DNA of 36,255 bases, taken from assembly GCA_018609945.1 (NCBI GenBank), contig JAHENO010000110.1, positions 1 through 36,255 on the forward strand, given 5' to 3'. A program made the translations under genes and the position numbers. Shown here one piece after another: positions 3,957 to 24,156 of the stretch (within the stretch, counting starts at the first letter, position 1; each line of letters begins with the position of its first letter). Below the pieces are notes generated by a model. It had not been told where the DNA came from, did not search any database, and was given only the letters and a program-made list of their open reading frames with translations. This stretch comes from Haloarculaceae archaeon (lineage in GTDB: Archaea; Halobacteriota; Halobacteria; Halobacteriales; Haloarculaceae).

Positions 3957-3985
3957 AGCCCAGTCAGAAAGCCCCCGGCCGTGGG
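3957..3985 (+). repeat. Fragment (5' end) of the dispersed palindromic repeat seen at 9.37 and 22.75-23.02 kb
   Basis: CAGTCAGAAAGCCCCCGGCCG matches the 5' end of the other copies (CCAGAAAGCYCCCGGCCGCTCG). Confidence 0.6.
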
Positions 3986-9365: not shown

Positions 9366-9505
9366 GACCAGCCAGAAAGCTCCCGGCCGCTCGACCATTC
9401 CGGGGCTCGCTGCGTTACTCGGTCGCTCCGCTCCCTGCGTTACGTACGTCGCCCGGGGAGAGCCGAGCGGCCGGCCCCTTTCAGTCCCATCCCGCCAGAG
9501 GCATG
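9366..9505 (+). repeat. Dispersed palindromic element, copy A
   Basis: CCAGAAAGCTCCCGGCCGCTCGACC...GGGGCTCGCTGCG...TTACGTACGTCGCCCGGGGAGAGCCGAGCGGCCGGCCCCTTTCAGTCCCATCCCG; strong match to copy C over its length. Confidence 0.85.
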
Positions 9506-9587: not shown

Positions 9588-10097
9588 TCAGGCGGGGAGC
9601 GAGACAGTGCCGGCAGAGACTTCGCGCTCGGCGTCCCAGAAAACGAGTTCGGTGATCACCCACTCGATGGGATCGATTTCTCGCTCGGCGAGTCGCCGCG
9701 CGGCCGCGAGAGTGCCGCCACGGGCGACCGTCACGTGGGGAACGTAGGCGTCACCCTCGATGTCCTCGACGGGGTCGAACGCGTCGAGGAGTCGATGGTG
9801 CAGCGCCGCCAGGCCGGGACTGTCGACGGCGAGATAGACCACCGGCGAGGGGCCGGCGGCCGCCTCCGCGAAGTAGTCGACGCCGGTCACCCGCGCCTCG
9901 ACGGCCGGCGCGCCGGCGAGCGCCTCGCGGGCGCGGGCGGCCAGCCGCTGGAAGGCCGCGCGGTCGCCGCCGCCGAGCCGTTTCACGACCAGCCCGTGTG
10001 TCTCGCGGGGGCGGGCGCGAGCGGCCGGGAGGTCCCGCGCCAGTTTCGAGGCCAGCGCGGACACCTCGCCCGGGAGAGGCGCGTTCAGGCTGTACAC
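9588..10097 (-). CDS. 2'-5' RNA ligase family (2H phosphoesterase-like) protein
   Basis: GTG start VYSLNAPLPGEVSALASKLARDL...; two H-x-(V/T) motifs THGLVVKRL and PHVTVARG. Confidence 0.75.
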   Translation of the reverse strand: MYSLNAPLPGEVSALASKLARDLPAARARPRETHGLVVKRLGGGDRAAFQRLAARAREALAGAPAVEARVTGVDYFAEAAAGPSPVVYLAVDSPGLAALHHRLLDAFDPVEDIEGDAYVPHVTVARGGTLAAARRLAEREIDPIEWVITELVFWDAEREVSAGTVSLPA

Positions 10098-20649: not shown

Positions 20650-21576
20650 ATGACGGTCGTGATCAAGATCGGTGGTGCCCGCGCGGTCGACCCCGCGGGG
20701 GCGCTCGCGGACGTCGAATCGCTCGTCAGCGGTGAGGCTGGCGAAGTGGCCGACCCGGAGGGCGGCGCCGGCCCGCACGGCGTGGTCGTCACCCACGGCG
20801 GCTCGACAACCGTCGACGAGACCCTCGAACGCCTGGGGATGGAACCCGAGTACGTCGAGACCCCCTCGGGTGTCGTCGGTCGCTTCACCGACGCAGAGAC
20901 GATGGACGTCTTCGAGATGGTGATGCCCGGCCTGCTGAACACGGACCTCGTCGCCAGACTCCAGAGCCGCGGCGTCGACGCCGTCGGGCTGTCGGGCGTC
21001 GACGGGAAACTGCTGTACGGCCCCCGCAAGTCCGCGGTCCGGGTCGTCGAGGACGGCAAGCGAAAGATCCGCCGGGGCGACCACTCCGGTAGCCTCCGGG
21101 AGGTCAACGCGGACCTGCTGGAGACGCTCCTTTCGGAGGGCTACACGCCGGTGGTGAGCCCGCCCATGGCCGGCGCCGACGACGGCAAGGTGACGCCGGT
21201 CAACACGGACGCCGACCGCTCGGCGGCCGCCATCGCCGGCGAACTCGACGCGACGCTCGTGCTGTTGACGGACGTCCCCGGCATCCTCGAAGACCCCGAC
21301 GACCGCGATTCGCTCATCCGCACCGTCGAGACGCCGGCCGACTGGGAGCGCATGGAGGCGGCCGCGGAGGGCTTCATGGGTCGGAAGGTGATGGCCGTCC
21401 GCGAGGCGCTCGAGGGCGGCGCACCCGAGGTGGTGGTCGCCGACGCGAACCTGGAGCGGCCGGTCGCCACCGCACTCGAAGGTGACGGTACGCACGTCTA
21501 CCCGTCGGCGCTCGATGGCGAGGACAGTGGCGACGAGGACAGCGAGGGTGACGCGAACGGAGGTGCCGAAGCGTGA
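20650..21576 (+). CDS. argB: Acetylglutamate / [LysW]-aminoadipate kinase
   Basis: VVIKIGGARAVDPAGAL; VVTHGGSTTVDETLERLG; VNTDADRSAAAIAGELDATLVLLTDVPGI. Confidence 0.94.
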   Translation: MTVVIKIGGARAVDPAGALADVESLVSGEAGEVADPEGGAGPHGVVVTHGGSTTVDETLERLGMEPEYVETPSGVVGRFTDAETMDVFEMVMPGLLNTDLVARLQSRGVDAVGLSGVDGKLLYGPRKSAVRVVEDGKRKIRRGDHSGSLREVNADLLETLLSEGYTPVVSPPMAGADDGKVTPVNTDADRSAAAIAGELDATLVLLTDVPGILEDPDDRDSLIRTVETPADWERMEAAAEGFMGRKVMAVREALEGGAPEVVVADANLERPVATALEGDGTHVYPSALDGEDSGDEDSEGDANGGAEA

Positions 21577-22700
21577 GCGGCTTCGTCTTCTCGGAAAAGC
21601 CCATCCAGATCGTCGAGGGCGACGGTCCGTACCTCTACGACGACGGCGGGACGGAGTACCTGGACATGGGCGCCAGTTACGCCTGCGTCCCGCTGGGGCA
21701 CGGCCACGACGCGGTCCAGTCGGCGGCCGCAGACCAACTCTCGCGGCTGACCTACGTGCAGGCCTCCTATCCGGTGGCCGTCCGGACGGACCTCTACGAA
21801 CGACTCGCCGAGACGGCACCCGGCGACATCGACTACACGTGGCTGTGTAACTCCGGGACCGAAGCGAACGAGGCAGCCCTGAAGTTCGCCCGCGCGGCGA
21901 CGGGCAACTCGAAGCTCGTCGCCACCATGCAGGGCTTTCACGGCCGCACCATGGGGTCGCTCGCGACCACCTGGAAGAACAAGTACAAGAAACCCTACGA
22001 GCCCCTGATCGGTGACGTCGAGTTCGTCCCCTACGACGACCCCGACGCCATGGCAGAGGCGGTCGACGAGGAAACGGCGGGCGTCATCGTCGAACCCATC
22101 CAGGGCGAGGGCGGGATCAACCCGGCAAGCAAGGAATTCCTCCAGACTGCGCGCGTCGAGACCGCGACGAACGGCGCGGCCCTGATCTTCGACGAGGTCC
22201 AGACCGGCATGGGCCGGACCGGGACGCTGTGGGCCTCGGAGTGGGCGGACGTGATCCCCGACATGGTCACGGCCGCCAAGGGACTGGGCAACGGCCTGCC
22301 CGTCGGCGCGACGCTGTGCCGGGAGTGGATCGCCGAGAACTACGGCGACCACGCCTCGACGTTCAGCGGCGGCCCGGTCGTCTCCGCCGCGGCCGAGGCG
22401 ACCGTCTCGACCATCGTCGACGAGGACGTCCCAGCCCACGCCGCCGACGTCGGCGAGTACCTCCGTGGGCGACTGCGCGAGGAACTCGGCGAGGCGGCCC
22501 GGGAGGTCCGCGGCGAGGGACTGATGATCGGTATCGAGATCAAGCGCGGCGCCAACCGCATCCTGAAGGAGCTGGCGCTGAACCACGGGATACTGGCGCT
22601 GCCGGCCGGGCGGACCGTGGTGCGGCTGTTGCCGCCGCTGACGATCGAAAAAGCGCATGCAGATCACGTGGTCGACGCGCTCGCGGAGGTTCTAGGATGA
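21573..22700 (+). CDS. argD: Acetylornithine / [LysW]-lysine aminotransferase
   Basis: NSGTEANEAALKFARAATG; FHGRTMGSLATTWKNKYKKPYEPL; LIFDEVQTGMGRTG. Confidence 0.95.
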   Translation: MSGFVFSEKPIQIVEGDGPYLYDDGGTEYLDMGASYACVPLGHGHDAVQSAAADQLSRLTYVQASYPVAVRTDLYERLAETAPGDIDYTWLCNSGTEANEAALKFARAATGNSKLVATMQGFHGRTMGSLATTWKNKYKKPYEPLIGDVEFVPYDDPDAMAEAVDEETAGVIVEPIQGEGGINPASKEFLQTARVETATNGAALIFDEVQTGMGRTGTLWASEWADVIPDMVTAAKGLGNGLPVGATLCREWIAENYGDHASTFSGGPVVSAAAEATVSTIVDEDVPAHAADVGEYLRGRLREELGEAAREVRGEGLMIGIEIKRGANRILKELALNHGILALPAGRTVVRLLPPLTIEKAHADHVVDALAEVLG

Positions 22701-22744
22701 GTTGTGCGAGGACTCGTCATTGGAGCGGCTGTGGCGGCTACGGG

Positions 22745-22880
22745 GCCGAAGAAAGCCCCCGCGCTCTCGGCTCCCGCGACTCGCTGCGCGCTTCGCTCGC
22801 TCACTGTGCTCGCTCGCTCAGTGCTTACTTCGTCGGGGTTCACCGAGAGCGCGGCCCCTTTCAGTCCCACCCGTGTCGGC
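22745..22880 (+). repeat. Dispersed palindromic element, copy B (+ orientation)
   Basis: GAAGAAAGCCCCCGCGCTCTCGGCTCCCGCGACTCGCTGCGCG...TTCACCGAGAGCGCGGCCCCTTTCAGTCCCACCCG; GCGCTCTCGG / CCGAGAGCGC terminal stem. Confidence 0.85.
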
Positions 22881-22894
22881 TGGCCAGTCAAGCT

Positions 22895-23020
22895 ACGCGG
22901 GCGGGACTGAAAGGGGCCGGCCGGTCGATCCCTCCCGGGCGACGTAAGCACGCGACCGGAGGGAGCGCGCGCAGCGAGCCCCGGAGGGTCGAGCGGCCGG
23001 GGGCTTTCTGGCCGGATTCG
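22895..23020 (-). repeat. Dispersed palindromic element, copy C (- orientation)
   Basis: Reverse complement reads CCAGAAAGCCCCCGGCCGCTCGACCCTCCGGGGCTCGCTGCGCGCGCTCCC...GCTTACGTCGCCCGGGAGGGATCGACCGGCCGGCCCCTTTCAGTCCCGCCCG, close to copy A. Confidence 0.87.
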
Positions 23021-23061
23021 GTATCCGTGACTCCGAGAGACACAACTCCGGAGGCTAGAAC

Positions 23062-24156
23062 ATGAGCGAGGCGAGCCAGTACGCCGAGCCCCGCGAACTC
23101 CTGATCAAGCTCGTCGGCATTCCCTCGGTCACCGGGGAGGAACGGGCCTGTGCCGAGCAACTGGTCACGTTCTTCGAGGCCCACGACCGGGAGGCCCGGA
23201 TCGACGAGATGGGCAACGTCCGCGCGCCGGCCGACGACGGCGTGTTGCTGACCTCCCACATCGACACCGTTCCGGGGGACATCCCGGTACGGGTCGAATC
23301 CTGGTCGGCCGAGGAGGTCGGCTGGGGCGGCAGCGACGAGCCCGACGCCGGGACGCTGGAGGTTCTGCGGGGGCGGGGCAGCGTCGACGCCAAGGGCTGT
23401 CTGGCGTCGATGGCCGTCGTCGCCGTCCGGACGGGCGCGAGTTTCCTGGGCGTCGTCGGCGAGGAAGTCGACTCCCGGGGGAGCCGCCACGTCATCGAGA
23501 CCCGCGAGAGCGAGCCCGACGCGGTCATCAACGGCGAGCCCTCGGGCTGGGACGGCATCACGCTGGGCTACCGTGGCCTCCTCGCGGGCCGCTATGTCGC
23601 CACGAGCGAGTCGGGCCACTCCTCGCGCCCGGAGAACAACGCCATCCAGGACGCCATCGCGTGGTGGTCGGCCATCGAGTCGGAGTTCGCGACCGACGAG
23701 TGGCAGCCCGTCTTCGAGCGGGTCACGCCCAAACCCACCGACATCCGGGGCGGCCTCACCGAGGACGGCCTCTCCGTGGAGGCGACCATGGACGTCCAGT
23801 TGCGCATCCCGCCGTCGATGTCGACCGAGGAGGTCGTCGAGATCGCCGACGGCCACCTCGACGTCGCGGACCGGGTCACCTGGTACGACCGCGTCGAACC
23901 GGTGATGCAGAGTCCCCGGACGCCGGTCGCGCGGGCCTTCCGCGCCGCGATCCGCGAGGCGGGCGGCGATCCCCGGCTACTCCGGAAGACCGGCACCGCC
24001 GACATGAACGTCTTCGCGAACGCCTGGGACTGCCCGATGGTCACCTACGGCCCCGGCGACTCGGACCTGGACCACGCGCCCGACGAACACCTGCCGCTCG
24101 CCGAATACGATAAGTCGGTGGCGGTCCTCGAAGCGGCCACCGAGCGCCTGCTATGA
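23062..24156 (+). CDS. lysK: [LysW]-lysine/[LysW]-ornithine hydrolase (M20 family)
   Basis: LVGIPSVTGEERACAEQL; LLTSHIDTVPGDIPV; GRGSVDAKGCLASMAVVAV; GVVGEEVDSRGSRHV. Confidence 0.93.
   Translation: MSEASQYAEPRELLIKLVGIPSVTGEERACAEQLVTFFEAHDREARIDEMGNVRAPADDGVLLTSHIDTVPGDIPVRVESWSAEEVGWGGSDEPDAGTLEVLRGRGSVDAKGCLASMAVVAVRTGASFLGVVGEEVDSRGSRHVIETRESEPDAVINGEPSGWDGITLGYRGLLAGRYVATSESGHSSRPENNAIQDAIAWWSAIESEFATDEWQPVFERVTPKPTDIRGGLTEDGLSVEATMDVQLRIPPSMSTEEVVEIADGHLDVADRVTWYDRVEPVMQSPRTPVARAFRAAIREAGGDPRLLRKTGTADMNVFANAWDCPMVTYGPGDSDLDHAPDEHLPLAEYDKSVAVLEAATERLL

What the first reader, a model, noticed from the sequence alone, without database searches (positions are those of the whole stretch)
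9366..9505. Dispersed repeat family with compensatory changes in its terminal stem
Copy A (9366-9505), B (22745-22880) and C (22895-23020, minus) share AGAAAGCYCCC at the 5' end, a GGGGCTCGCTGCG-like core, TTACGTCGCCCGGG, and GGCCCCTTTCAGTCCC at the 3' end. The outer stem differs but remains paired: CGGCCGCTCG/CGAGCGGCCG in A and GCGCTCTCGG/CCGAGAGCGC in B. In C it is imperfect: GGCCGCTCGACCCTCC against GGAGGGATCGACCGGCC. Covariation of this kind suggests selection for a folded structure (RNA, or a DNA cruciform needed for mobilisation).
Basis: partly seen in the sequence, partly recalled or inferred. Interest (0 to 1): 0.85.

Follow-up and report, generated by a model that had tools for sequence, protein, structure and literature searches.

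The report
Mobile repeat with covarying folded core
Salt-loving archaea carry a widespread family of small, gene-less jumping DNA elements whose core keeps the same folded shape although its letters change in matching pairs; the jumping is shown by comparing genomes, but what the folded core does is still unknown.

Summary
The window is part of a haloarchaeal draft genome. Copies A, B and C belong to a ~116-nt stem-loop family found in 250 of 300 genomes (67 of 79 genera) sampled from the class; in a phylum-wide sample no match was listed outside the window's own order. Covariation is real: 22 of 30 pairs show double changes, and the 13 strongest covarying column pairs are all structural, above every value of a tree-based null. 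The core is carried by 210-460-bp transposase-free units. Some have the ends of archaeal IS6-type insertion sequences and 8-bp target duplications, and one has empty sites in relatives. The B/C pair interrupts argD-argE, nearly adjacent in 28 relatives that lack it. It is an IS6-type MITE family (known kind) with a structured core absent from Rfam. Core function is unproven, and the window copies' own ends are no longer recognisable.

The parts
9374..9492 (-). copy A, structured core (folded strand is the minus strand: 5'-GGATGGGACTGAAAGGGGCC...GGGAGCTTTCT-3')
   Evidence: covariance model R1, 106.8 bits, E 6e-18; RNA fold z -2.7
22750..22872 (-). copy B, structured core, left arm of the tail-to-tail pair
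   Evidence: R1 114.4 bits, E 2e-19; fold z -3.4
22899..23009 (+). copy C, structured core, right arm of the tail-to-tail pair
   Evidence: R1 85.5 bits, E 5e-14; fold z -3.1
22869..22902 (.). 34-nt spacer between the two feet of B and C; inverted in the congener G001
   Evidence: 32/34 identical to G001 when inverted, 20/34 direct
22701..23061 (.). insert between argD-like aminotransferase (21573-22700) and argE/lysK-like M20 peptidase (23062-24156); holds B, C and flanks
   Evidence: gap of -1 to 124 nt and no core in 28 family genomes; core present only in G000 and G001; Pfam
9597..9611 (-). possible right terminal repeat of unit A, GGCACTGTCTCGCTC (12/15 to the IS6-type consensus); no left partner or target duplication recognised
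   Evidence: weak

Best explanation
A, B and C are the structured cores of a haloarchaea-wide family of miniature transposable elements (MITEs). The units encode no transposase. Intact ones end in terminal inverted repeats of the archaeal IS6-type insertion sequences (GGYMSTGTYYAGWTA), make 8-bp target duplications and lie in intergenic DNA. They are therefore most likely moved in trans by IS6-type DDE transposases: the end match, target duplications and empty sites are shown; the enzyme itself is inferred. Each unit carries one core (~215 bp) or two tail-to-tail cores (~320-460 bp); the window's B/C pair is of the second form and A is a lone core. The core folds on its bottom strand (5'-GGGYGGGACUGAAAGGGGC[P1]...[P1']GGGGGCUUUC-3') into a long hairpin: an invariant GAAAG/CUUUC helix, a GGG/GGG internal loop, an 11-13-bp stem of almost free sequence, and inner helices interrupted by conserved internal loops (a tandem-GA-like and an AA/GCA loop). 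The folded bottom strand appears to be kept by selection, as RNA read from intergenic transcription or as single-stranded DNA; which of the two, and for what use, is inferred and open.
For: Structure: 22 of 30 pairs with double changes; 96.5% of cells paired against 76% when shuffled and at most 50% when slid. The top 13 covarying column pairs are all structural and exceed every value of a tree-based null. There are 109 distinct 12-nt outer arms among 144 copies. Strand: G.T 91 against A.C 23 cells; 58 against 20 parsimony events; 88 against 26 in 110 further copies. Mobility: IS6-type ISs in relatives have the same ends. Of 17 units with both ends at 13/15 or better, 8 have 7-8 of 8 matching target duplications, against 0.85% in shuffled pairs. 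There are six related units in one genome, five with clear ends, and exact duplications in L250 and L252. The L191 insert of 340 bp lies at CTAGCGAG; the site is uninterrupted in G009 and about 20 other genomes. B/C interrupts argD-argE only in G000 and G001. Intergenic: 1 of 91 copies overlaps a predicted gene.
Against: The window copies themselves have no recognisable terminal repeats, apart from one 12/15 end at A. Of 162 copies, only 40 have an IS6-type end of 13/15 or better within 110 bp. Four of the copy-rich genomes (G030, G064, G093, G102) and G000 have no convincing IS6-type transposase match, although some of these assemblies are drafts or incomplete. No orientation bias relative to co-directional neighbours (26 against 20) speaks against a simple mRNA leader role. 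Part of the covariation could be mutational: the B/C spacer has been inverted. Unpaired control columns also show a C>T excess. Most training copies were chosen by their exact foot, so the invariance of the foot and of helix 1 is partly by construction; relaxes this.
Confidence: 0.72

Rival explanations
1. The paired changes are made by mutation, not kept by selection: during replication the palindromic arms template-switch, so a change in one arm is copied into the other. The core is then a neutral palindrome hitch-hiking in a MITE.
For: The 34-nt spacer between the arms of B/C is inverted between G000 and G001 while the arms are collinear, a typical trace of switching between inverted repeats. 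Nested ~54-bp double hairpins with perfect, freely varying stems occur inside many cores. Stems stay paired in copies whose ends are not recognisable (0.935 against 0.883).
Against: Arm copying should leave G-T and A-C mismatches equally often, but both routes to G-T exceed those to A-C (C>T 44.8 against G>A 14.5; A>G 9.4 against T>C 2.1 events; the unpaired control is only partly skewed). The GGG/GGG loop stays open in at least 102 of 110 copies outside the training set although copying would close it. Inner helices broken by asymmetric conserved loops also covary.
Confidence: 0.25
2. The core is a functional non-coding RNA family that uses MITEs only as a vehicle; copies act after transcription, in trans or on read-through transcripts.
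For: RNA-like features: wobble tolerance on one strand, conserved internal loops, presence in 83% of sampled Halobacteria genomes.
Against: No expression evidence could be obtained; no Rfam match even at relaxed threshold; no promoter identified; no orientation bias to neighbouring genes.
Confidence: 0.35
3. The core acts as DNA: the bottom strand extrudes or is exposed as single-stranded DNA, possibly with a potassium-stabilised G-quadruplex from GGG-Y-GGG and the facing GGG tracts, and serves host protein binding or transposition.
For: Four conserved G tracts on the folded strand (GGG-Y-GGG foot in about 85 of 110 copies and GGG/GGG loop in at least 102 of 110); G-T is also the least harmful mismatch in DNA (own knowledge); G-quadruplexes are reported in Haloferax (PMC12873603).
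Against: IS6-type ISs lack the core, so transposition does not seem to require it; quadruplex formation was not testable here.
Confidence: 0.3
4. A PATE or IS605-type end, or a REP/BIME-like element mobilised by an HUH (Y1) transposase.
For: Palindromic core; tail-to-tail pairs resemble BIMEs; haloarchaeal PATEs are common (PMC3119063).
Against: Units have terminal inverted repeats and 8-bp target duplications, which PATEs and IS605-type elements lack by definition (PMC3119063); the core is about 116 nt, whereas REPs are 20-40 bp (PMC3733652).
Confidence: 0.05

Closest known systems
Archaeal IS6-type MITEs (ISFinder lists MITEHarch3 in the IS6 family; PMC6807381)
   Same: terminal repeats of IS6-type ISs, 8-bp duplications, no transposase, archaeal host
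   Different: the sequence of MITEHarch3 was not available here, so identity with this family is untested; no covarying core or single/tail-to-tail architecture for IS6-type MITEs was found in the papers searched
SMR-A small mobile repeats of Haloquadratum (HqIRS42/43/55; PMC3119063)
   Same: about 110 bp, prominent inverted repeats, many copies, enigmatic mobilisation
   Different: SMRs have no target duplication and insert into palindromes of PATEs; within a type they are commonly >95% identical, whereas this core varies freely in its stem. The nested ~54-bp double hairpins seen here resemble SMRs in habit more than the core does
PATEs (palindrome-associated transposable elements; PMC3119063)
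   Same: non-coding, palindromic, numerous in haloarchaea
   Different: PATEs have no terminal inverted repeats and no target duplications and derive from IS605-type elements
REP/BIME elements
   Same: intergenic palindromes that occur in inverted pairs
   Different: much shorter; tied to TnpA-REP (own knowledge); no such tag or enzyme was found here

Membership tests
IS6-type MITE | terminal inverted repeats shared with a transposase-bearing IS | tested here: met
   IS6-type loci L207, L208, L211, L213, L209 have GGCACTGTCTAGTTT, GGTCGTGTTTAGTT, GGTAGTGTTTAGTTTGG and GTAGTGTTCAGATAAGG; units have the same ends. Family level only.
IS6-type MITE | 8-bp target-site duplication | tested here: met
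   8 of 17 two-ended units with >=7/8, against 0.85% null; L250, L252 and L191 exact
IS6-type MITE | no transposase gene, under ~500 bp | tested here: met
   unit lengths 211-458 bp
IS6-type MITE | insertion polymorphism (occupied and empty sites) | tested here: met
   L191/L307; argD-argE
IS6-type MITE | recognisable ends and duplications in the three window copies | tested here: inconclusive
   B/C flanks score at background; A has one end at 12/15
IS6-type MITE | cognate transposase present in the same genome | tested here: inconclusive
   present in G017, G022, G049; weak or absent in G000, G030, G064, G093, G102
PATE / IS605-type | no terminal inverted repeats, no target duplication | tested here: not met
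   both present in intact units
known RNA family (Rfam 15) | match at gathering score | tested here: not met
   none in the window, none convincing at relaxed threshold
functional non-coding RNA | compensatory covariation | tested here: met
functional non-coding RNA | expression from the folded strand | not testable with these tools
   no RNA data available
REP/BIME | association with TnpA-REP | not tested
   IS6-type ends already explain mobility

The most novel reading that the evidence does not exclude
The core is a new class of functional structured nucleic acid (RNA, or single-stranded DNA with a hairpin-coupled G-quadruplex), spread through haloarchaea by MITEs and kept by selection on its shape while its main stem is nearly free to change, so that each genome holds many same-shaped but sequence-distinct copies.
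Probability: 0.35. Interest if true: 0.85.

Novelty: new variant of a known kind. Interest (0 to 1): 0.6.

Why it matters
A MITE interior normally decays; here it keeps a complex fold across most of a class of archaea. Either the fold does something, which would make it one of the most widespread uncharacterised structured elements in haloarchaea and testable in Haloferax volcanii, or palindrome-driven mutation can imitate textbook covariation, which would be a warning for RNA discovery by covariation. The wobble-asymmetry test and the orthologous G000/G001 pair make the two readings separable.

Tried and rejected
Rfam at gathering and relaxed thresholds: nothing. PATE/IS605 and REP/BIME: contradicted by terminal repeats and target duplications. 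IS110 bridge RNA, suggested by an ISHvo9 transposase about 390 bp from the pHV4 copy: no recurrent transposase family near the cores, dropped. Gene-cassette recombination sites (attC-like): no cassettes between cores, dropped on anatomy. Cis-acting mRNA leader: no orientation bias. Intrinsic terminator: no U tract, dropped on sequence. First attempt at an empty site in genus g57: flanks too diverged, uninformative. 'Empty' cores (GAAAGCCCCCGGCCCCTTTCAGTCCC and the like; L010, L024, L029, L047) were first taken as insertion targets; they are as well explained by deletion between short repeats and were not pursued.

Full report
Observation. The three copies are present as described. A covariance model built from 88 relatives finds exactly three cores in the window: A 9492-9374 (minus), B 22872-22750 (minus) and C 22899-23009 (plus), with 107, 114 and 86 bits. 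The only error in the description is that B lacks TTACGTCGCCCGGG. The window is contig C110 of a 2.93-Mb haloarchaeal draft genome. That genome has 33 blastn matches to A and 20 exact copies of the 15-nt foot, with none for the reversed control. In the family, 89 of 151 genomes have exact feet, up to 127 per genome.

Distribution. With the covariance model, 250 of 300 genomes sampled from the class have matches (67 of 79 genera, at most 12 candidates scored per genome). In a phylum-wide sample of 249 genomes the 39 positives all lie in the window's own order. Copies also lie on plasmids, including Haloferax volcanii pHV4. They are intergenic: 1 of 91 copies overlaps a predicted gene, and divergent contexts outnumber convergent ones 35 to 9 (my own gene caller, approximate).

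Structure and covariation. It gives 30 consensus pairs, 22 with double changes. Cells paired are 96.5%, against 76.2% on shuffling and at most 49.6% when partners are slid; the covariation score is 0.504 against 0.141. A test modelled on R-scape, with substitutions redistributed on a FastTree tree, puts 13 structural pairs at the top, all above the maximum of 20 null alignments. The main stem is nearly free in sequence: 109 distinct 12-nt arms in 144 copies, with mutual information of about 0.4-1.25 bits on the diagonal at varying positions and mostly below 0.2 off it. The three window copies fold better than dinucleotide shuffles (z from -2.7 to -4.7, both strands).

Which strand, and is it selection? 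On the bottom strand G.T cells outnumber A.C 91 to 23. By parsimony, 58 losses of Watson-Crick pairing go to G.T and 20 to A.C. Both routes contribute: C>T 44.8 against G>A 14.5, and A>G 9.4 against T>C 2.1. In unpaired columns the per-base rates are C>T 0.068 and G>A 0.037, A>G 0.042 and T>C 0.083, so mutational skew can explain only part of it. In 110 copies not in the training alignment the counts are 88 to 26, and the GGG/GGG internal loop is intact in at least 102. This favours selection on the folded bottom strand, as RNA or single-stranded DNA. It is not proof: the model used to find these copies was trained on that strand.

Mobility. In the QS_9_67_17 and QH_7_66_36 genomes the core is the middle of a ~215-bp unit with inverted ends GGTAGTGTTCAGnTAA. 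IS6-type insertion sequences of related genomes, found with PF13610, have the same ends. Units from several genera show such ends with 7-8 of 8 matching target duplications; among 17 units with two good ends, 8 reach 7/8, against 0.85% by chance. One genome (G347) holds six related units, five of them with clear ends, with exact duplications in L250 and L252. At the nuoCD/msrA junction of G017 (gene names from my reading of the translated ends, not tested) a 340-bp unit lies between CTAGCGAG repeats; the joined flanks match without interruption in G009 (90%) and about 20 further relatives. IS6-type insertion sequences themselves carry no core. Supply of the transposase in trans is inferred.

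The window copies. B and C form a tail-to-tail pair between an aminotransferase (argD-like) and an M20 peptidase (argE/lysK-like), followed by an ornithine carbamoyltransferase-family gene. In 28 other family genomes the two genes are separated by -1 to 124 nt without a core. Only the congener G001 has the pair, as a common insertion. Comparing G000 with G001 at this locus, the arms are mostly identical but the 34-nt spacer is inverted: 32/34 identical when inverted, 20/34 direct. Recombination or template switching between the facing feet thus occurs, and a mutational contribution to arm complementarity must be taken seriously. Terminal repeats are not recognisable around B/C, and only one possible end (12/15) is seen at A. 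Membership of the window copies in the IS6-type class therefore rests on homology of the core, not on their own ends.

What it most likely is. An IS6-type MITE family (known kind; ISFinder lists MITEHarch3 in the IS6 family, PMC6807381) with a conserved, covarying structured core in single or tail-to-tail form that was not found in Rfam or in the papers searched. Identity as a mobile unit: about 0.85. Selection on the folded bottom strand: about 0.7. Function as RNA about 0.35, as DNA structure about 0.3, neutral palindrome about 0.25. A possible quadruplex of the four conserved G tracts is only a suggestion.

Caveats. Most training copies were collected by their exact foot, so invariance of the foot and of helix 1 is partly by construction. 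Gene contexts rest on a simple frame-composition caller. E-values of the model are rough. The literature held is open-access only, so an earlier description in a subscription journal or in ISFinder cannot be excluded.

Noticed in passing
L252 against L249; also L040, L074, L075, L199, L203: About 54-bp double-hairpin inserts with perfect but freely varying stems lie inside the cores; two independent clean inserts are visible between near-identical units of one genome. They resemble small mobile repeats that target palindromes.
   Followed up: partly
window 22869-22902 against L338: The spacer of the tail-to-tail pair is inverted between two congeneric genomes while the arms are collinear (32/34 identical when inverted).
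   Followed up: yes
L043, L049, L051, L064, L066, L122, L128, L133, L137: A second conserved module, CCTCCCCAGCCGAYTCG-hairpin-CATCCCTCGCGCG-hairpin-CCAGCGCGCGCC, often follows the top-strand foot (10 of 15 motif hits), so some units carry a larger structured region.
   Followed up: partly
L009, L013, L023, L027, L031: In the window's genome the 5' half AGAAAGCCCCCGGCCGCTC is repeated about 63-66 bp upstream of full cores, a tandem of half-units.
   Followed up: no
window 3966-3981: A lone 5' fragment AGAAAGCCCCCGGCCG without a 3' foot lies between predicted genes.
   Followed up: no
L161, L164, L165, L172, L178, L096, L115, L133: Subfamilies keep the foot and main stem but have a different apical part (ACATATC...GATAGGGG), as if the inner half had been exchanged.
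   Followed up: no
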